A stretch of DNA of 24,257 nt, taken from IMG/VR virus record IMGVR_UViG_3300037115_000048, positions 1-24,257 of that record, one strand, 5' to 3'. The notes under the pieces are model-generated. The model did not search any database. It was given only the letters and a program-made list of their open reading frames with translations, and had not been told where the DNA came from. Shown piece after piece: positions 2,346 to 14,010 of this stretch (within the stretch, counting starts at the first letter, position 1; each line of letters opens with the position of its first letter). The stretch comes from a virus. The translations under genes were made by a program, and so were the position numbers.

Positions 2346-3554
2346 GTGGCAACCCTAACAATCGTCCAGACGTACTCCACACCCGGGGCGTACGTCTGGA
2401 CCCCGCCGGGGCTACCTGAGGGCGCGGTCCTAGTATCAGCGACTGTCACCCCTGTAGTGATCGGCGGCGGCGGCGGCGGCGCAAGTGGCCCCGCGGCTAC
2501 TAACAGTGCCGCGAGCGCGGCTGCCGGCGGCGGGGGCGGGGGCGCCGGTTATGCGACCGCGACCTATCAGCTCGTAAATCTTCCCGCGTCTGTGGCGATT
2601 GTTGTCGGTGTCGGTGGTCTGGGGGGTGTGGCGGTTGTAGCGTTGCCGCCAGCAACCTCCTCCCCTGGAAACAATGGCGCTACTGGGACGTCCTCTTCTT
2701 TTGGTGGCACCCTACTTGTCGGCCCCGCGGGCGGCTCGGGATTCGCAAACACTATCGGCGGCGCGGGCGGCACCGGCTCAAATGATGGCACCCGGTCCCC
2801 GACTGGAGTCGTTGTACAAACCGGCGGCGCAGGCGGTATGGCCGGCGTTGCACCAACAGCCGGCGCAGCGGCCACGCTCGCGGGCGACGGCGGCGGCGGC
2901 GGGGCAGCTGCCCAAGGCACGTCGCCATTCTCATTCGCTGGAGCGAATTCCGGCAGCGGCGCGATTGGGGGTGCCCCGGCGATCAACGGTAACGGCACGA
3001 GCGGTGCGGCCGGCTACGCGGGCGCCGGCGGCGGCTCGACCTATACGCCTTACAATACGAGTACCGCCAACTGGTCGGCGGGTTCCGGCGGGGCCGCGAC
3101 TTTCCCAGGCGGTGGTGGCGGCGGCGGCGCAATGGCTGCCAACGACGAGCTACACAGCGCGACCTCGGGCGCAGGCGGTCTCGGCGCGAACGGGATGGTG
3201 GTTGTTACGACGGTCTACGTCGTGTTGTTTCCCGCTACCGTCGCTGGAGGACAGCAGCTGACTCCGAACCCAAATGTTACTGCGGTAGCTGGCATGGGCG
3301 GCGACAAGTGGGGCGCGAACGGTGGCGGCATCAACCCGATCGGCGGGGGTGTCACCGGCGTGCAAGGTTGGGACGAGCGCCTGAAGGTGACAACTTCCGA
3401 CGGTCAGCGCACGACGACCTACGAAGTGAACCCAATCCCGGTGATTGCTAAAGGTGCTCCGACGCAGTCCGTGTTATCTCAAGTTTCCAACAGCGCGCTC
3501 TCGGAACTGAGTTTTGATGATACGCTCCCAGGTGGAGGAAGCCATGCAGGATAA
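2346..3554 (+). CDS. Glycine-rich phage protein, probable tail/virion component
   Basis: This 402-residue protein begins with GTG immediately after an in-frame TGA, so no longer start exists. Residues about 7-20 read QTYSTPGAYVWTPPG, the aromatic TPG-x-Y-x-WTPP signature that opens many phage glycine-rich domain proteins. It is followed by repeated GGGGGG runs, the pattern of proteins folding as polyglycine-rich sheets in tail tips or fibres. The last 100 residues are less repetitive and more polar, perhaps an attachment or trimerisation domain. There is no clear ribosome binding site, and a 12-bp inverted repeat sits just inside the gene. Membership of the glycine-rich tail-associated group is inferred from motif and composition. 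Confidence 0.8.
   Translation: MATLTIVQTYSTPGAYVWTPPGLPEGAVLVSATVTPVVIGGGGGGASGPAATNSAASAAAGGGGGGAGYATATYQLVNLPASVAIVVGVGGLGGVAVVALPPATSSPGNNGATGTSSSFGGTLLVGPAGGSGFANTIGGAGGTGSNDGTRSPTGVVVQTGGAGGMAGVAPTAGAAATLAGDGGGGGAAAQGTSPFSFAGANSGSGAIGGAPAINGNGTSGAAGYAGAGGGSTYTPYNTSTANWSAGSGGAATFPGGGGGGGAMAANDELHSATSGAGGLGANGMVVVTTVYVVLFPATVAGGQQLTPNPNVTAVAGMGGDKWGANGGGINPIGGGVTGVQGWDERLKVTTSDGQRTTTYEVNPIPVIAKGAPTQSVLSQVSNSALSELSFDDTLPGGGSHAG
2364..2401 (+). promoter_or_regulatory. Perfect 12-bp inverted repeat at the start of the glycine-rich gene
   Basis: GTCCAGACGTAC (2364-2375) is the exact reverse complement of GTACGTCTGGAC (2390-2401), with a 14-base spacer. On the mRNA it would form a 12-bp stem starting 18 bases after the GTG start codon. 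No U-tract follows, so it is not a standard terminator. It could hinder or tune translation, or act as a DNA site. It lies in codons of a conserved protein motif, so part of the symmetry may be coincidental. Confidence 0.6.
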
Positions 3555-7349: not shown

Positions 7350-7649
7350 GTGGGTATAGCATTCCACCAGCTTTTGCTGGATGACATGATTGCTGTCGCG
7401 CTGCTGGGTGACTCCGCTGCGATGGGGCGCATCAAGTTGCCGGATTGGCAGCGGTATCTGCGCGGCACCGTGATCGCTGTCGGACCCGGTAAGATGCTCC
7501 CGTATGGCGACCGCGCACCGATGGAGTGCAAGGTTGGCGACACGGTGACGTTCTCACCGACAGCCGGCATGGCGAGCGACTACGGGGTTGGCAAACAAGT
7601 GCGTTTGATGAGAGATCCGGATGTAGATTCTGTGGAGGAAGCCTCATGA
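7350..7649 (+). CDS. GroES-like co-chaperonin (copy 1)
   Basis: The 99-residue product aligns by eye over its whole length with bacterial GroES (about 97 residues). LLDDMIAVALL corresponds to the first strand, GRIKLPD (26-32) sits at the mobile loop that contacts GroEL, and RGTVIAVGPGKMLPYGD (38-54) matches the signature strand and roof hairpin. PMECKVGDTVTFSP is equivalent to the PLDVKVGDIVIF stretch. Co-chaperonins cap GroEL and assist folding; phages such as T4 (gp31) encode their own to fold the capsid protein. It starts with GTG behind AAGGTGAG and its TGA overlaps the next ATG. No GroEL is in the window, so it would work with a host or distant chaperonin. Confidence 0.85.
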   Translation: MGIAFHQLLLDDMIAVALLGDSAAMGRIKLPDWQRYLRGTVIAVGPGKMLPYGDRAPMECKVGDTVTFSPTAGMASDYGVGKQVRLMRDPDVDSVEEAS

Positions 7650-8191
7650 TACTCACGCCGGAACTCCAAGATGTTGCGGCACGCACGCACGTGCTGCGTG
7701 ACCGAGTCTTAGTGAAGATTCTTCCGTATGTGCACCCAATCTTGGCGACGCCCGGAGTTGAGGTGAGCAAAGGGGTTGTGATCGCAGTCGGCTACGGCAG
7801 ACGGCAGCGCCGTAAGGTAGAATTTAAACAGAGCATCAGCGGCGGGGCGCCAGTGATTGGCCCGGACGGAAAGACCGTCATGAAATTTGCGCCCTCACGC
7901 CTGAACGACCGTGCACTGTTTTTTGATGACGGCGATGAGACGGGGCGCATAATTCCGATGCAAGTGAAGCCGGGCGATGTAATCGAGTTTGGATTCAGAA
8001 ACGTGACGTTGGTGGATTTTGACCGTGTCGGGTTCCCTGGAATCGGCCATCTCGCTTTCATCTGGCAAGCCGCAGTTTATAGCATCGATCCAGACGAGTC
8101 TTTTGAAAATTGTCTTCTTTGGCAAGAGAGCGCAGGCCACGACCGTCAAGGGAACTTTATGAGCGGACAGGAGAGTTGGGCCCGTGCTTAA
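7646..8191 (+). CDS. Divergent GroES-like protein with inserted segment (copy 2)
   Basis: The 181-residue product starts at an ATG overlapping the stop of the first GroES-like gene (ATGA). HVLRDRVLVKILPYV (15-29) and KGVVIAVGYGRR (42-53) match the first strands of GroES. IPMQVKPGDVIEFG (103-116) matches the PLDVKVGDIVIF strand. Between these lies an extra stretch of roughly 45 residues placed at the roof hairpin, and the segment where the mobile loop would be (30-41) is short. A C-terminal tail of about 60 residues is also beyond normal GroES length. The fold call is fairly good; whether it binds a chaperonin is open. It could form mixed rings with copy 1. Confidence 0.7.
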   Translation: MILTPELQDVAARTHVLRDRVLVKILPYVHPILATPGVEVSKGVVIAVGYGRRQRRKVEFKQSISGGAPVIGPDGKTVMKFAPSRLNDRALFFDDGDETGRIIPMQVKPGDVIEFGFRNVTLVDFDRVGFPGIGHLAFIWQAAVYSIDPDESFENCLLWQESAGHDRQGNFMSGQESWARA

Positions 8192-8202
8192 GCAATCTTG
8201 GC

Positions 8203-9099
8203 GTGAGTAACCGTAAACCAAAGACCGGAAAGGCGGACTTCGCGCGTCAAGTCTGCGACGCCATCAAAGACGGCTCGCCTGATATGTACAACGGCGCCGC
8301 CAGACGCGTTGTGCCGATCGAGGAAGCCGAGAGACAGGGATGGCCGCACTACTACGACGGCAAGACCGCGTGCCCCCAGGGGCATGTCGCCGCCCGGTAC
8401 GTCTCAAATCCTGCCGTCTGCGTGGATTGCCGGCGCATCGGCGACGGTAAAACTGCGATTTACTCGAAAACCGAATTTCTGGACGCCCTGACAGGCCATC
8501 CCGTGTACGTGGACCCGGTCGCAAGCGACAGATTCGAGTGGACAGACGAAAAAAAGCGCCAACTGTTGACCGCGTGGATCAATACCACCGATATTTTAGC
8601 CGCCGCGAAGACAATTGGCGCGCAACCGTCGCATGTGATCGATCTTTTGGCGTCGGATGTCGAATTTAAGGCCGCTTACGAAGACGCGCAGCGAAAAGTC
8701 GAGCAAGTGCAGCTCTGGTCGGTCGAATCAAGGGCCGGCGGCGGTAGTGATCGCCTTCAGTTGGCGATGGCGCAGAGTAAATTCACTCAATTCGGAGCCA
8801 AAACAGGTTTGGCGGACCGGCCAACAGTAAACACGGAGCAGGCGCGTGCAGAACTTACCCAACTCCTATCAGTTGCTAAGCGAGCGCTTGCTCAGCGAGC
8901 ACGACTTGAGTCAGTTGCAAGAACTAGTCGAAGTGTGGGACGTACTGACATCCCCGCAGCAGATTCAGCAGGCACTGACGTGGAAAAACCGGCTCTATTG
9001 GGACAACCACACGACAATAGCGACTTGGTTTCCGACGCCGGCAGTGAGAGCGGCGTATCCGAAGCAGATGCTGCACTTCCAACTCGGCGCAAAGTATGA
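8203..9099 (+). CDS. Terminase small subunit-like protein with N-terminal zinc motif
   Basis: The GTG at 8203 gives 298 residues; a TTG at 8110 would add 31 and overlap the GroES-like gene. No good ribosome binding site marks either start. Residues 57-76 carry C-x3-H-x11-C-x2-C (C57, H61, C73, C76) within YDGKTACPQGHVAARYVS, a knuckle common in phage DNA-associated proteins. Residues about 113-160 (WTDEKKRQLLTAWINTTDIL then GAQPSHVIDLLASDVEFKAAY) look like the helix-turn-helix region of small terminases, which recognise phage DNA for packaging. Its position immediately before the large subunit fits. The last 84 codons overlap the large-subunit gene in another frame and look low-complexity. 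Confidence 0.7.
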   Translation: MSNRKPKTGKADFARQVCDAIKDGSPDMYNGAARRVVPIEEAERQGWPHYYDGKTACPQGHVAARYVSNPAVCVDCRRIGDGKTAIYSKTEFLDALTGHPVYVDPVASDRFEWTDEKKRQLLTAWINTTDILAAAKTIGAQPSHVIDLLASDVEFKAAYEDAQRKVEQVQLWSVESRAGGGSDRLQLAMAQSKFTQFGAKTGLADRPTVNTEQARAELTQLLSVAKRALAQRARLESVARTSRSVGRTDIPAADSAGTDVEKPALLGQPHDNSDLVSDAGSESGVSEADAALPTRRKV

Positions 9100-9733
9100 C
9101 GAGCGCGGCCTGTTCGGGGGGAATCGCAGCGGCAAGACACATTGCGGCACATTCGAGGACACGCTCCATTTGACCGGCCTCTATCCGGACTGGTGGGAGG
9201 GCCGGCGCTTCGATCGCGCGATTGGCGCCTGGGTGGCGACCGATACCGCAAAAAACGTCCGCGACATCCTACAGGAGAAGTTCTGCGGGGAGCCGGGCGT
9301 GCCACAGCTGTTTGGTACCGGCATGATTCCGATCGATTACTTTGCCAGCGAGCCCACGTCGAAGCACGGGATCGCGAACGCATTCGAGGCGGCATACGTC
9401 CACCATTTTACGAACGGGATCTATGACGGCGTCTCGACACTGATGTTCAAGTCCTACGATCAAGGACGTCAGGCGTTCCAGGGCACCCAACAGGATCTCA
9501 TCCACCCGGACGAAGAACCGAAGATCGAGATCTACACCGAGATGTCGTTACGGCTTATGAGCACGTCCCCCGGTGAGCAGAACGGGGCCTTAGTTTTGAC
9601 CGAGACCCCGCTCTTAGGGATCAGTGAATTAATGATCGCGTTCATGCCAGAGCTGAACCCGCTGCCGGATGCGCGCCCTGTTCGCGAGTACGACCACGAT
9701 CAACCGGACTACGACATGGTGGTCAGTGAGTGA
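8846..9733 (+). CDS. terL: Terminase large subunit, N-terminal ATPase part (split gene)
   Basis: The 295-residue product is the motor half of a large terminase, which pumps DNA into the prohead. WFPTPAVRAAYPKQMLHFQL is the typical lead-in. GGNRSGKT (91-98) is the Walker A motif, PDEEP around D222-E224 is the Walker B acidic site, and LTETP (251-255) is the coupling motif. The GTG start at 8846 has GGAG six bases upstream and lies inside the small-subunit gene; a GTG at 8933 is an alternative. The frame ends at a TGA created within a GTGA tandem duplication, and the nuclease domain continues in the next frame. Without it this half could hydrolyse ATP but not cut DNA. Confidence 0.85.
   Translation: MQNLPNSYQLLSERLLSEHDLSQLQELVEVWDVLTSPQQIQQALTWKNRLYWDNHTTIATWFPTPAVRAAYPKQMLHFQLGAKYDERGLFGGNRSGKTHCGTFEDTLHLTGLYPDWWEGRRFDRAIGAWVATDTAKNVRDILQEKFCGEPGVPQLFGTGMIPIDYFASEPTSKHGIANAFEAAYVHHFTNGIYDGVSTLMFKSYDQGRQAFQGTQQDLIHPDEEPKIEIYTEMSLRLMSTSPGEQNGALVLTETPLLGISELMIAFMPELNPLPDARPVREYDHDQPDYDMVVSE
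9726..9733 (+). repeat. GTGAGTGA tandem duplication that splits terL
   Basis: The bases read GTC-AGT-GAG-TGA in the ATPase frame. Removing one GTGA copy joins the frames as DMVVSEINESRVATFLDMDD, a continuous terminase sequence. The duplication therefore both makes the stop codon and supplies a GTG start for the downstream frame. It may be a real 4-bp insertion or a sequencing or assembly error. Confidence 0.75.
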
Positions 9734-10517
9734 GATTAACGAGAGTCGCGTCGCAACCTTTTTAGATATGGATGATGTGCCTCATCTAACAGCCGCGGAA
9801 AAAGCCAAAATTTTAAAAGGCGTTGCACCCTTCGAGTTGCAGGCGCGCAAGTCCGGTATCCCTGGTCACGGCGTCGGCGCGATCTATCCGATCGCCGAGA
9901 GCGTCATGACGATGCCGGCATTCGATATTCCGAAGCACTGGCCGCGCAGCTACGGGATGGACCCGGGCTGGAACTGCACCGCGGTGATATGGTTCGCGTG
10001 GGACACAGACCACGGATACGTGGACCGGGACGGCGCGAGGCGCTATCCGGCGTACGGGTACGATGAGTACTACATGGGTCAAGAGCACCCGGCCATCCAT
10101 GTCGCCGGGATCAACCGACGCGGCCCATGGATCCCCGGCGTCATCGACCCCGCTGCCGAGAAGGCGCGCGGCCTCGATGGCGAACTGCTGCTTGAGACCT
10201 ACCGCGGGCTGGGACTGAACGTCCACAAGGCCGACAACTCGGTTGTGTCGGGCCTGATTCAGACCTGGGATATGCTTTCGACTCAGAAGCTGCGCGTCTT
10301 CGACACGCTGCTGAACTGGCGCAAAGAGATCCGCCTATACAAGCGCGACGAGAAGGGCGTCATCATCAAGCGCAACGACCACTTGATGGACGCGATGCGC
10401 TATAACGTTATGAGCGGTTTCGCCGTGGCGCGGCCGCCGCCGGCCAGCGAGGGCGGTCTGCCATGGTTTACCTGGAGTCCTGAATTAGCTTCTCCTGGTG
10501 GGGTATGGAGCGGGTAG
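9726..10517 (+). CDS. terL: Terminase large subunit, C-terminal nuclease part (split gene)
   Basis: From the GTG at 9726 the product is 263 residues. MDDVPHL (15-21), the IPGHGVGAIYP stretch and SYGMDPGWN with D79 are typical of the region leading into the RNase H-like nuclease of large terminases. VIDPAAE (D141) and NDHLMDAMRY (D218, D222) supply the further metal-binding aspartates. The nuclease cuts concatemeric DNA at the start and end of packaging. The start is uncertain: GTG 9726 overlaps the upstream TGA by eight bases, which allows reinitiation, and ATG 9768 is another choice. The open frame extends back to 9669. All key acidic residues are kept, so the half is not visibly decayed. 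Confidence 0.85.
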   Translation: MSEINESRVATFLDMDDVPHLTAAEKAKILKGVAPFELQARKSGIPGHGVGAIYPIAESVMTMPAFDIPKHWPRSYGMDPGWNCTAVIWFAWDTDHGYVDRDGARRYPAYGYDEYYMGQEHPAIHVAGINRRGPWIPGVIDPAAEKARGLDGELLLETYRGLGLNVHKADNSVVSGLIQTWDMLSTQKLRVFDTLLNWRKEIRLYKRDEKGVIIKRNDHLMDAMRYNVMSGFAVARPPPASEGGLPWFTWSPELASPGGVWSG

Positions 10518-11565: not shown

Positions 11566-14010
11566 GTGAGCGGAAATTCAGGCGAGAACTGGGATTTAGT
11601 ATCAAGTGTGCCCGGCCAGACCGGGCCGCTGCCTGATCATCCTGGGTTCGACATCGAGGACGAGGGCGCGCTCATGTCGCGCATCCGTAACTTCTATGAC
11701 GAGGGTGTTGGAGCGTGGGAAGAAAACCGCCGCATGCACTCGGAAGATCTGAATTTCATCTACAACTCTGAGGCGATGGGCCAGTGGGATCCGGTCGTCC
11801 TTCAGAACCGCCGCGGCAAGCCCTGCTACACATTCAACCGGTGTCTGCAGCCGGTTAACATCGTCGTGGCCGACATGCGACAGACGCGCCCCGCAGGCAA
11901 GGTGCGCCCGGCCAGCAAAGGCGCGAGCGTGCCAGTTGCCGAAGTCTTCGGCGGCCTGTGCCGCTCGATCGAGCAGTGCTCGCGCGCCGATCAGATATAC
12001 AAAGAACAGTTCAAGTTCTCCGTCGCGGGCGGCTTCGGCGCGTGGCGTATCATGCCGACGTACATGCAAGACGACGGGGATGGCGCCTTCGATCAGGTGC
12101 TGCGCCTCATCAACATCGCGAACCCGCAGACCGTGATCTGGGATCCGCAGTGCGCGGACGCCTGCGCAGGGGACGCGAACCGCTGTGTCGTGACCGAGCG
12201 CATCGCGGAAGAAGTCTACCACGCGCTCTACAAGGACGGCAACGGCCAGAGTTTCGCTATCTCGCGCGACAGTTACGGTTGGTTCACCGATCAGGAAGTC
12301 CGGATCGCGGAGTACTTCGAGCGCGTGCCGCGCGAGAAACAGATTGCGAAGATGACGGATGGCACCGTCCAAGACTACGACGCGGATCTGCGTGCGCAGG
12401 AAGCGCACTTTGACGAGCACCGGATCACGTACGAGCAGCACGGCACCACGCGCATTGCCAAAGACAAGCAAGGCAACAAGATGGTGCGGCGCACCGTCGT
12501 CTGGCAAGTGATGTGGGTGAAGGTCGACGGATCGAATGTCCTCGAAGGCCCGTACTACTACGACTGGAAGCGCATCCCCGTGGTCCGCTGCCCCGGCCGG
12601 TACATCAACATCGAGGGCCGCAAGAAGTTTCAGTCGCTGATTCGTCACGCCAAGGACGCGCAGCGCAGCTACAATTCCCGGGCCTCGGACATGATCGAGC
12701 GTAGCGCGCTCATTCCGAAGGCGCCATACCTCGTCACCGAGGCAATGATCAAGGGCTACGAGAACGACTGGAACCAAGCGAACGTCCAGTCGCGGCCGTA
12801 CCTGCCGTACAACGTGGACGCTAAGGCGCCGGAAGGCGGGATGCCGTTCCGCACCCCGCCGCTCGATCTGCCGCAGGGCGCCATGGCGCTCGCGCAGATG
12901 TCGATTCAGGACATCCAGGCCACCATCGGTTACTTCGACCCGGCGCTCGGCAACGCCGAAGACATGAACCGCGTCTCAGGCAAGGCGCTCGTGCAGCACA
13001 CGAAGCGTTCGGACCTGGGCAGCTACGAATTCACGGACGGATTCCAGTCAGCTCTGCAGCTGACCTGGGAGATGTTCGTTGACATGATCCCGACCGTCAT
13101 GGACTCCGAGCGCGTCGAGCGCATCATCGGGCACGATGGCGTGGAGGCCATGGTCACGGTGAACGGCGCCCAGGAAGGCACCGACGACCTGATCAACGAC
13201 CTGAGCAAGGGTGAGTACGATGTCACGGTCACCATTGGCCCGAACTTCGAGACGGCCCGCCAGCAGGCACTCGATACGCTGATCTCGTTCAGTGAGGCGC
13301 TGCCGCAGACCGCACCGATGATCGCGGACCTGCTCGCGAAGAACATTGACACGCCGGACGCGCAAGAGATGTCGCGCCGGCTGCGGATTCCGCTGATACA
13401 ACAAGGACTCATCCAGCCGACCGAGGCGGAAAAGAAAGCCGGAGTTGGTCAGCAGAAGACGCCGCAGCAACAGGCCCAGGAGGCGCAGCAGGCGTTGTTG
13501 ACAGCTAAGGTTCAGAAGACGGGCGCTGAGGCCACGCTCGCGCAATCGAAGGTTCAGATGATACCGGTGGAGCAGCACAAGCTGCACGTCGAGACCGCCG
13601 GCAAGCATCTCGGCAACATCAAGATCGCGCACGACATCGGCGCGGACGCACAGGCCGCGGCCACCGCTCAGCAGGCGGAGGAGCAGGAGATGCAACAGGA
13701 TGCGCAAGCGCACGCGCAGGGCCAGCAGCAGGACGCGCAGGCGCACGCGCAAGACCAGCAGCAGGGCCAGCAGCAGCACGTTGCCGATCTGACTCATGAG
13801 CACCAAGCGCACGTCGCGGGTCTGTTGAAGGAGCGCTCGCAGCACGAGGCCGACATCGCGCACGCGCATGCATCGCATCAGGCCGAGATGGCGCATATGC
13901 ACGAGAAACATCAGCTGACCCTGAAGCATCAGGGAGAGCTGAACGAGCAGAAGGTCGCCGCCGCCAAGGCGCTGGCCGCTGCCAAACCCAAGAAGGCAAA
14001 GGCCGCTTGA
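11566..14010 (+). CDS. P22-type portal protein with extended Gln/His-rich C-terminal helix
   Basis: The 814-residue product is the dodecameric DNA gateway of the capsid. Its length is above the 725 residues of P22 portal. The N-terminal part (IRNFYDEGVGAWEENRRMHS, then PCYTFNRCLQPVNIVVADMR), the core with WDPQC and the YYYDWKRIPVV and RSYNSRASDMIERS stretches, and the helix-loop region IQDIQATIGYFDPALGNAED match the P22-like portal pattern. From about residue 625 the sequence is a long Ala/Gln/Glu/His helix resembling the portal barrel of P22 but unusually rich in His and Gln. The start is GTG, overlapping the influence of the 9-codon leader. It packs with the terminase and the gp4-like connector. 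Confidence 0.88.
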   Translation: MSGNSGENWDLVSSVPGQTGPLPDHPGFDIEDEGALMSRIRNFYDEGVGAWEENRRMHSEDLNFIYNSEAMGQWDPVVLQNRRGKPCYTFNRCLQPVNIVVADMRQTRPAGKVRPASKGASVPVAEVFGGLCRSIEQCSRADQIYKEQFKFSVAGGFGAWRIMPTYMQDDGDGAFDQVLRLINIANPQTVIWDPQCADACAGDANRCVVTERIAEEVYHALYKDGNGQSFAISRDSYGWFTDQEVRIAEYFERVPREKQIAKMTDGTVQDYDADLRAQEAHFDEHRITYEQHGTTRIAKDKQGNKMVRRTVVWQVMWVKVDGSNVLEGPYYYDWKRIPVVRCPGRYINIEGRKKFQSLIRHAKDAQRSYNSRASDMIERSALIPKAPYLVTEAMIKGYENDWNQANVQSRPYLPYNVDAKAPEGGMPFRTPPLDLPQGAMALAQMSIQDIQATIGYFDPALGNAEDMNRVSGKALVQHTKRSDLGSYEFTDGFQSALQLTWEMFVDMIPTVMDSERVERIIGHDGVEAMVTVNGAQEGTDDLINDLSKGEYDVTVTIGPNFETARQQALDTLISFSEALPQTAPMIADLLAKNIDTPDAQEMSRRLRIPLIQQGLIQPTEAEKKAGVGQQKTPQQQAQEAQQALLTAKVQKTGAEATLAQSKVQMIPVEQHKLHVETAGKHLGNIKIAHDIGADAQAAATAQQAEEQEMQQDAQAHAQGQQQDAQAHAQDQQQGQQQHVADLTHEHQAHVAGLLKERSQHEADIAHAHASHQAEMAHMHEKHQLTLKHQGELNEQKVAAAKALAAAKPKKAKAA
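13699..13764 (+). repeat. Two tandem 33-bp repeats in the portal C-terminal barrel
   Basis: Two consecutive 11-codon units encode DAQAHAQGQQQ and DAQAHAQDQQQ. They differ at a few bases and one residue and lie in the predicted coiled-coil barrel. Such units can expand or contract by slippage, which would lengthen or shorten the barrel. Confidence 0.75.

What the first reader, a model, noticed from the sequence alone, without database searches (positions are those of the whole stretch)
8846..10517. Large terminase split into ATPase and nuclease frames by a 4-bp GTGA duplication
Seen: Walker A, Walker B and coupling motifs are in one frame, which ends at TGA 9731-9733. The nuclease motifs (D79, D141, D218, D222 of the second frame) are in the next frame. 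Removing one GTGA from GTGAGTGA (9726-9733) restores a continuous terminase sequence. The same duplication provides both a stop and a GTG start, so a two-protein terminase made by reinitiation is conceivable. A simple sequencing or assembly error, or a recent inactivating mutation, is also possible. Both halves keep their key residues, which argues against long-standing decay.
Basis: partly seen in the sequence, partly recalled or inferred. Interest (0 to 1): 0.8.

Follow-up and report, generated by a model that had tools for sequence, protein, structure and literature searches.

The report
Phage DNA-packaging enzyme in two genes
In a large group of mostly uncultured phages the enzyme that pumps and cuts viral DNA, normally one protein, is encoded as two overlapping genes cut inside its motor domain, so the two pieces probably have to fit together to work.

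Summary
In detail: terL is in two frames meeting at GTGAGTGA (9726-9733). The proposed cause is not. Of 92 contigs whose nuclease half is at least 50% identical to the window's (window included), 91 are split at the same linker, in differing relative frames; the nearest relative has the same GTGAGTGA. The motif is one form of a start/stop overlap (ATGAGTGA, ATGAGTAA, GTGAATGA), not a duplication that broke a gene. Error, recent mutation, frameshifting and introns fit badly. Both halves are under purifying selection; four catalytic Asp are invariant in 56 sequences.

The cut is not at the ATPase/nuclease hinge. By structure it lies inside the ATPase domain: ORF A holds the P-loop engine; ORF B the last ~50 residues of that domain, the hinge and the nuclease. 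In 14 contigs an HNH/endonuclease VII-like ORF sits between the halves; two loci keep deletion scars of one. A single split clade is rejected. Best reading: two separately translated proteins that assemble into one TerL, a genes-in-pieces terminase. The papers found report terL in pieces only with introns or inteins. No protein data exist.

The parts
8846..9733 (+). terL-A: P-loop (engine) part of the large terminase ATPase domain, 295 aa, GTG start, TGA stop 9731-9733
   Evidence: Pfam Terminase_6N, phrog_2 and phrog_31467; homologues with the same end; dN/dS 0.118 with L005
9726..10517 (+). terL-B: end of the ATPase domain (about residues 1-50), hinge and RNase H-fold nuclease, 263 aa from GTG 9726 (the frame also has an ATG at 9669)
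   Evidence: phrog_2, phrog_5653 and P22 nuclease domain 4dkw; D79 D141 D218 D222 invariant in 56 sequences; dN/dS 0.101 with L005
9726..9733 (+). GTGAGTGA: start codon of terL-B (GTG 9726-9728) overlapping stop codon of terL-A (TGA 9731-9733); 8-nt overlap
   Evidence: same place and spacing in L005; ATGAGTGA, ATGAGTAA, GTGAATGA or TTGACTAA at the same place in many relatives
9747..9854 (+). terL-B residues 8-43: strand and two helices at the end of the ATPase domain in the model
   Evidence: model residues 301-336; ATPase-only structures reach model residue 340-350; poorly predicted without A
9116..9139 (+). Walker A motif GGNRSGKT in terL-A
9497..9520 (+). Walker B motif LIHPDEEP in terL-A
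9590..9619 (+). coupling motif region LVLTETPLLG in terL-A
8110..9099 (+). small terminase (terS) candidate ORF, overlapping terL-A by 254 nt in another frame; the outermost start is given
   Evidence: phrog_4044 terminase small subunit, E 2.9e-5; overlap
11566..14010 (+). P22-like portal protein, a following head gene
   Evidence: Pfam P22_portal E 5.5e-143

Best explanation
The large terminase of this P22-like-headed phage is a stable two-gene, two-protein enzyme. terL-A makes the P-loop engine part of the ATPase domain; terL-B makes the rest of the ATPase domain, the hinge and the nuclease. B is translated from its own start codon, which overlaps A's stop, probably by termination-reinitiation here (no Shine-Dalgarno-like motif found) and helped by such a motif in about half of the insert-free relatives. 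The two chains then assemble non-covalently: B's first ~50 residues complete A's ATPase fold, giving a canonical TerL. The cut leaves the covalent link between the end of the ATPase domain and the nuclease intact. HNH/endonuclease VII-like genes enter and leave the junction in relatives, and such insertions probably made or maintain the split. Shown: two frames, conservation, selection, position of the cut (by model), inserts and their scars, rejection of a single split clade. Inferred: two proteins made, reassembly, function, and the endonucleases as the cause.
For: Split in 91 of 92 contigs with B at least 50% identical: relative frame +1 in 46, +2 in 21, frame 0 with stops in 10, insert in 14, intact 1 (L225). 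L005 (A 85%, B 89% identical) has the same junction. In 47 of 54 distinct insert-free junctions the chosen B start lies within -40 to +3 nt of A's stop; for the window the script chose ATG 9669 (-62), GTG 9726 being at -5. dN/dS over 13 pairs: A 0.04-0.31, B 0.03-0.15. D79/D141/D218/D222 invariant in 56 B sequences. Shine-Dalgarno-like motif before B's start in 26 of 54 distinct insert-free junctions, against 25 of 1738 start-like codons inside A. In 9 of 9 virus records of 40-61 kb a phrog_2 search rang only at the split terL (limits below). Cut inside the ATPase domain: read-through model pLDDT 85.7 with a poorly predicted junction (274-295); ATPase-only structures of P74-26 and T4 span to model residue 340-350, and nuclease-only structures other than P22's begin at 341-346; B alone is poorly predicted over its first ~55 residues. 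Endonuclease-like ORFs between the halves; scars of 44+12 nt in L024 and 15+27 nt in L042.
Against: No protein, ribosome-profiling or packaging data. The window has no Shine-Dalgarno-like motif before either B start. In T4, cutting gp17 at the hinge kept ATPase and nuclease but abolished DNA translocation (PMC3012670, passage), so a two-chain TerL is not expected to work without special contacts; the cut here is elsewhere. The B-only model used a thinner alignment (56 against 89 sequences), so its low confidence is only suggestive. No co-fold of A with B could be run. The phrog_2 search is not sensitive: it found the A half in only 1 of the 9 records and missed L130's known B half altogether, so a second, diverged terL is not excluded. 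The P22 nuclease structure 4dkw is listed from model residue 257, although by sequence it starts at B residue 49. The endonuclease-caused origin is not shown: inserts are in 14 of 92 contigs and could have invaded an existing junction.
Confidence: 0.8

Rival explanations
1. Sequencing or assembly error: the true terL is one frame and a 4-bp artefact splits it.
For: Removing 4 bases would join the frames; one window alone cannot exclude it.
Against: 91 of 92 related contigs are split at this point, in three frames and with inserts; L005, another contig with 15% amino-acid differences in A, has the same junction.
Confidence: 0.02
2. Recent inactivating mutation or decaying gene.
For: The Walker and catalytic residues are intact, which would fit a very recent event as well.
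Against: Shared through the clade, 32 of 32 split rows in the careful tree; dN/dS 0.10-0.12 for the window pair; no second phrog_2 terminase in 9 of 9 long virus records, a search of limited sensitivity.
Confidence: 0.02
3. Programmed +1 frameshifting at GTGAGTGA makes a fused TerL.
For: The frame relation is +1 in the window and in 46 of 92 contigs in all; the overlap would allow slippage.
Against: In 21 contigs the shift is +2, in 10 the halves are in one frame with a stop between, and in 14 a 396-517 nt insert lies between them; no shared slippery sequence was seen by eye at the junctions (not searched for); 26 of 54 distinct insert-free junctions have a Shine-Dalgarno-like motif before B's start.
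Confidence: 0.05
4. Group I/II intron or intein splicing joins the halves, as in other phages' terL.
For: Interrupted terL genes are known: ICP1 (PMC10448857), Bastillevirinae (PMC11878797), Jug phages (PMC12363816), phage IBB_35 (PMC3322345) (passages).
Against: No Rfam match in 19 loci including the window; in the window the halves overlap by 8 nt, so there is nothing to splice; the inserts are largely filled by an endonuclease-like ORF that in several loci touches or overlaps A's stop and B's start. Inteins were not searched for.
Confidence: 0.02
5. The two proteins work as separate enzymes and do not rebuild one TerL fold.
For: Four distant relatives have 1.1-1.8 kb between the halves (L111, L117, L119, L130), so close neighbourhood is not always kept.
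Against: The cut is inside the ATPase domain, leaving A without its last strand and helices and B with a poorly predicted N-terminus alone.
Confidence: 0.08

Closest known systems
Aeromonas phage Aeh1 nrdA split by the mobE homing endonuclease ('genes-in-pieces'; PMC2988022, passages; Friedrich 2007 seen only in reference lists)
   Same: An essential phage gene is in two reading frames with a free-standing HNH gene between them; the separate polypeptides form an active enzyme.
   Different: Here the gene is terL, 77 of 91 split contigs have no insert, the split is shared by a whole clade, and one origin is rejected.
Aeromonas phage 25 / 44RR DNA polymerase gene 43A/43B (PMC2988022, passages)
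   Same: A split enzyme gene; the products of phage 25 co-purify and are active.
   Different: A different enzyme; the passages name two phages, not a clade.
Intron- or intein-interrupted terL (ICP1, Bastillevirinae, Jug phages, Campylobacter phage IBB_35; passages)
   Same: terL in pieces, with homing endonucleases inside or beside it.
   Different: There splicing is shown or presumed to rejoin one protein; here no intron was found and the window's halves overlap.
P22-like / T4-like large terminases (P22 gp2, T4 gp17)
   Same: Same domains, motifs and catalytic Asp residues; fold matched by structure.
   Different: Those are one chain.

Membership tests
Tailed-phage large terminase (TerL; Terminase_6 / P22-like) | N-terminal P-loop ATPase with Walker A, Walker B, coupling motif | tested here: met
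   Pfam Terminase_6N 39.8 bits, cut-off 22; motifs placed
Tailed-phage large terminase (TerL; Terminase_6 / P22-like) | C-terminal RNase H-fold nuclease with catalytic Asp cluster | tested here: met
   P22 nuclease 4dkw Z 24.0, rmsd 2.2, 184 aligned, E 2.4e-12 by sequence; four Asp invariant in 56. Pfam Terminase_6C was below its cut-off (20.4 against 22.6)
Tailed-phage large terminase (TerL; Terminase_6 / P22-like) | Both domains in one polypeptide | tested here: not met
   Two frames, here and in 91 of 92 close contigs, window included
Tailed-phage large terminase (TerL; Terminase_6 / P22-like) | Place in the packaging module beside terS and portal | tested here: met
   terS candidate upstream, P22 portal downstream
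Homing-endonuclease 'genes-in-pieces' | Gene divided into two frames relative to intact homologues | tested here: met
   27 intact homologues aligned across the linker
Homing-endonuclease 'genes-in-pieces' | Free-standing endonuclease gene at the break | tested here: not met
   Not in the window (8-nt overlap); inserts in 14 of 92 contigs, with scars in L024 and L042
Homing-endonuclease 'genes-in-pieces' | The two products form an active enzyme | not testable with these tools
   Needs expression and binding assays
Intron-split terL | Group I/II intron between the halves | tested here: not met
   No Rfam match in 19 loci; the window's halves overlap
Intein-split terL | Intein between the halves | not tested
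   No intein search was run; in the window there is no sequence between the halves

The most novel reading that the evidence does not exclude
A whole clade of environmental phages runs a genome-packaging motor whose every subunit is a two-chain complex, cut between the ATP-hydrolysing engine and the part that passes force to the nuclease domain. This fission has happened (and perhaps been reversed, L240) several times at the same surface loop, driven by endonuclease genes that come and go, because it spares the covalent link that T4 needs for translocation.
Probability: 0.5. Interest if true: 0.85.

Novelty: new variant of a known kind. Interest (0 to 1): 0.7.

Why it matters
TerL is a hallmark tailed-phage protein, much used as a marker (recalled), and a model molecular motor. 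In T4, separating its domains at the hinge abolishes translocation (PMC3012670, passage). A natural motor working in two pieces would show which covalent links the motor really needs, offer a ready-made separable engine for biochemistry, and warn that terL surveys requiring a full-length gene can miss such phages (phrog_31467, the best match of the A half, has no function assigned).

Tried and rejected
GTGA duplication as the cause: rejected, since the 8-nt motif is a start/stop overlap with ATG, GTG or TTG in relatives, and of 92 close contigs only L225 (B 50.6%) is intact. Introns: Rfam, gathering thresholds, 19 loci, no match. Inteins: not searched. NCBIfam found nothing for five inserts and both halves. 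PDB by sequence found nothing relevant for A. Phage records near in DNA: none by megablast of window 1-24000. Spacers of 1.1-1.8 kb in distant loci: no Pfam match in two L117 ORFs, LPD23 in an L111 ORF; L119 and L130 not searched. L107, and possibly L109, L070 and L075, have overlaps reaching close to or into B's conserved start, so some splits could be plain frameshifts; they do not carry the argument.

Trees: the first (quick, 108 rows thinned from 144) had long branches meeting; it needs 7 changes of intact, at least 5 forced by starred branches. The second (careful, 80 rows) left out 49 of 190 rows (open-ended, B under 36% identical, or short) and thinned the other 141 at 93% identity; it needs 11 changes between split and intact, 6 forced by starred branches. 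One split clade is rejected (p-AU 7.5e-79), but I had seen the trees before the test, long branches are in play, and it cannot tell repeated fission from repeated re-fusion.

Rows dropped and counts mended: an earlier tally gave 94 records, 93 split; it counted L219, L222 and L223 twice (re-fetched contigs) and left out the new contig L187. The recount drops L001, L085-L088, L219, L222, L223 and L170-L217 except L187: 92 contigs, 91 split, 78 distinct B sequences. L080 and L131, with one half only, are left out. Farther out the split is less common: B 36-50% identical, 17 intact and 17 split (2 more intact but open-ended); under 36%, 27 intact and 8 split (1 more open-ended).

Not-in-print claim: searches, in open-licence PMC only; subscription papers and most preprints were not searched, and only passages of the papers cited were seen.
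Full report
What was checked. Frame A (8846-9733) matches Terminase_6N and frame B (9726-10517) matches large-terminase families and the P22 nuclease domain. The neighbours are a P22-like portal, a scaffold and a P22-like coat gene, so this is a head and packaging module. The record is a 24,257-base virus record, probably a fragment.

Is it an error or a recent mutation? No. Scans of the viral collection and a comparison of both halves in the fetched loci show the same split in the relatives. Of 92 contigs whose B half is at least 50% identical, window included, 91 are split: 46 in relative frame +1, 21 in +2, 10 in frame 0 with stops between, and 14 with 396-517 nt between the halves; one (L225, 50.6%) is intact; the 92 hold 78 distinct B sequences. 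The nearest relative, L005, has the same GTGAGTGA though 15% of A and 11% of B residues differ. Elsewhere the same place reads ATGAGTGA, ATGAGTAA, GTGAATGA, TTGACTAA, or a stop touching an ATG or TTG. In 47 of 54 distinct insert-free junctions the chosen B start lies within -40 to +3 nt of A's stop; five lie beyond +3 and two before -40, one of them the window, where the script preferred ATG 9669 (-62) to GTG 9726 (-5). So GTGAGTGA is a start/stop overlap, and its look of a duplication is a by-product. Pairwise dN/dS is 0.118 (A) and 0.101 (B) for window and L005; over 13 pairs A ranges from 0.04 to 0.31 and B from 0.03 to 0.15. D79, D141, D218 and D222 are invariant in 56 B sequences. In nine of nine long virus records (40-61 kb) a phrog_2 search rang only at the split terL, but it found the A half in one of the nine only, and in a second set it missed L130's known B half, so a diverged second terL is not excluded.

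Where is the cut? Intact homologues carry a linker of very variable length at this point, between the helix after the coupling motif and a conserved stretch (WDDxPHL). The read-through of both frames, modelled with 89 sequences, gave pLDDT 85.7 and pTM 0.78, with residues 274-295 (the junction) under 50. Solved ATPase-only domains (Thermus phage P74-26, Z about 19; T4 gp17, Z about 15) span to model residue 340-350, and solved nuclease-only domains of SPP1, G20c, P74-26, RB49, Sf6 and herpesviruses begin at 341-346; P22's, 4dkw, is listed from 257 (only first and last aligned residues are given), though by sequence it starts at B residue 49, model residue 342. B starts at model residue 294. 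So B's first ~50 residues are the end of the ATPase domain, and the cut is a loop inside that domain. B modelled alone has block pLDDT 31-59 over its first 60 residues and no strand there, against 71-91 for the same residues 8-57 in the joined model; its nuclease part is mostly confident. Its alignment was thinner, so this is suggestive only.

How it most likely works. A and B are translated separately. Before B's start a Shine-Dalgarno-like motif stands in 26 of 54 distinct insert-free junctions, against 25 of 1738 start-like codons inside A (related sequences, so not independent); after an insert it stands in 1 of 9. In many relatives A's acidic tail (such as EEEEVVVDE) encodes it (by eye). 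The window lacks it before both possible starts, so coupling of termination to reinitiation is inferred. The chains then complete one fold. A review reports that cutting T4 gp17 at the hinge kept ATPase and nuclease but lost translocation, and calls ATPase subdomain II the transmission between engine and nuclease domain (PMC3012670, passages). From memory, that subdomain's C-terminal part begins near T4 residue 314, which would put the natural cut near the engine/transmission border and leave transmission and nuclease in one chain. This would explain why this cut, and not the hinge cut, is tolerated; it is inference.

How it arose. In 14 of 92 contigs an insert of 396-517 nt lies between the halves. 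Ten of the 14 inserts were searched in Pfam: five match Endonuclease_7 (L007, L010, L025, L035, L044); of the other five, four have no match and L046 has one irrelevant match below cut-off. Six were searched in PHROGs (L007, L010, L029, L046, L071, L078) and six of six match endonuclease VII or HNH families; NCBIfam gave none for five. The four not searched look like the others by eye (L011, L045 and L059, L187). Most of these ORFs begin in A's last codons, several at the very place where B begins in insert-free relatives, and several end on or next to B's start. L024 keeps the first 44 and last 12 nt of L029's 519-nt gene, and L042 the first 15 and last 27 nt of L046's 501-nt gene, so the endonuclease can be lost while terL stays split. 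In the careful tree the window sits in a group of 32 rows, all split (support 100/100); over 80 rows, split and intact need 11 changes, 6 forced by well-supported branches, and a single split clade is rejected (p-AU 7.5e-79; I had seen the trees before). Farther relatives are mixed: B 36-50% identical, 17 intact and 17 split; under 36%, 27 intact and 8 split, open-ended ones left out. An intact row, L240, sits among split ones (93/95); its linker holds SGSKVAIMVSWEDVPHL where the split L229 starts MSKVAVMVSWEDVPHL, which hints at re-fusion. L167, in the cultured Acetobacter musti LMG 30640, is a split terL with a GTGA overlap; that genome also has other, unsplit phrog_2 matches on other contigs.

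Against this reading: no protein data; the T4 hinge-cut result; no Shine-Dalgarno-like motif in the window; a suggestive but unequal comparison of models; a terminase search of limited sensitivity; no test of A-B binding; and some distant splits that may be simple frameshifts.

Compared with what is known. It works like the genes-in-pieces enzymes of phages Aeh1 (nrdA) and 25 (gene 43), whose separate polypeptides are active (PMC2988022, passages). It is TerL by domains, motifs and place, but fails the one-chain feature. terL genes in pieces are known with introns or inteins (PMC10448857, PMC11878797, PMC12363816, PMC3322345; passages only); no intron was found here. One GenBank phage (MW202785) already has two CDS both called large terminase protein, with no note in the record. 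No paper on an unspliced two-protein TerL was found in nine searches of an open-licence library, which leaves most subscription journals unsearched.

Verdict. A real, conserved two-gene terL; a new variant of the genes-in-pieces kind, with a testable two-chain motor. The duplication, error and mutation readings are rejected.

Noticed in passing
window 8110-9099 / 8846-9733: The terS candidate ORF overlaps terL-A by 254 nt in another frame; in seven of seven relatives looked at (L005, L006, L009, L012, L015, L019, L020) a frame open upstream of A likewise runs 188-212 nt into it (in L012 cut by the contig end). A long overlap, possibly dual coding; the frames were not compared by sequence.
   Followed up: partly
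L240: Intact terL nested among split ones, with a linker that resembles a former B start (SKVAIMVSWEDVPHL): possible re-fusion.
   Followed up: partly
L117, L130, L119, L111 (between A and B): 1.1-1.8 kb between the halves; an L111 ORF there holds an LPD23 domain, two L117 ORFs have no Pfam match.
   Followed up: partly
window 7526-8191: Weak match to the co-chaperonin Cpn10 (E 0.0046, below cut-off), near the packaging genes; the related record MW202785 has an annotated groES co-chaperonin downstream of its head-to-tail connecting protein.
   Followed up: no
L163: A split terL of this clade on a 34-kb contig of a Solirubrobacterales bog MAG: a possible host lead, or a phage contig binned with it.
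   Followed up: no
window 2346-3554: Weak glycine-rich-domain match (Pfam Gly_rich_2, E 0.0027, below cut-off) in a 402-aa ORF.
   Followed up: no
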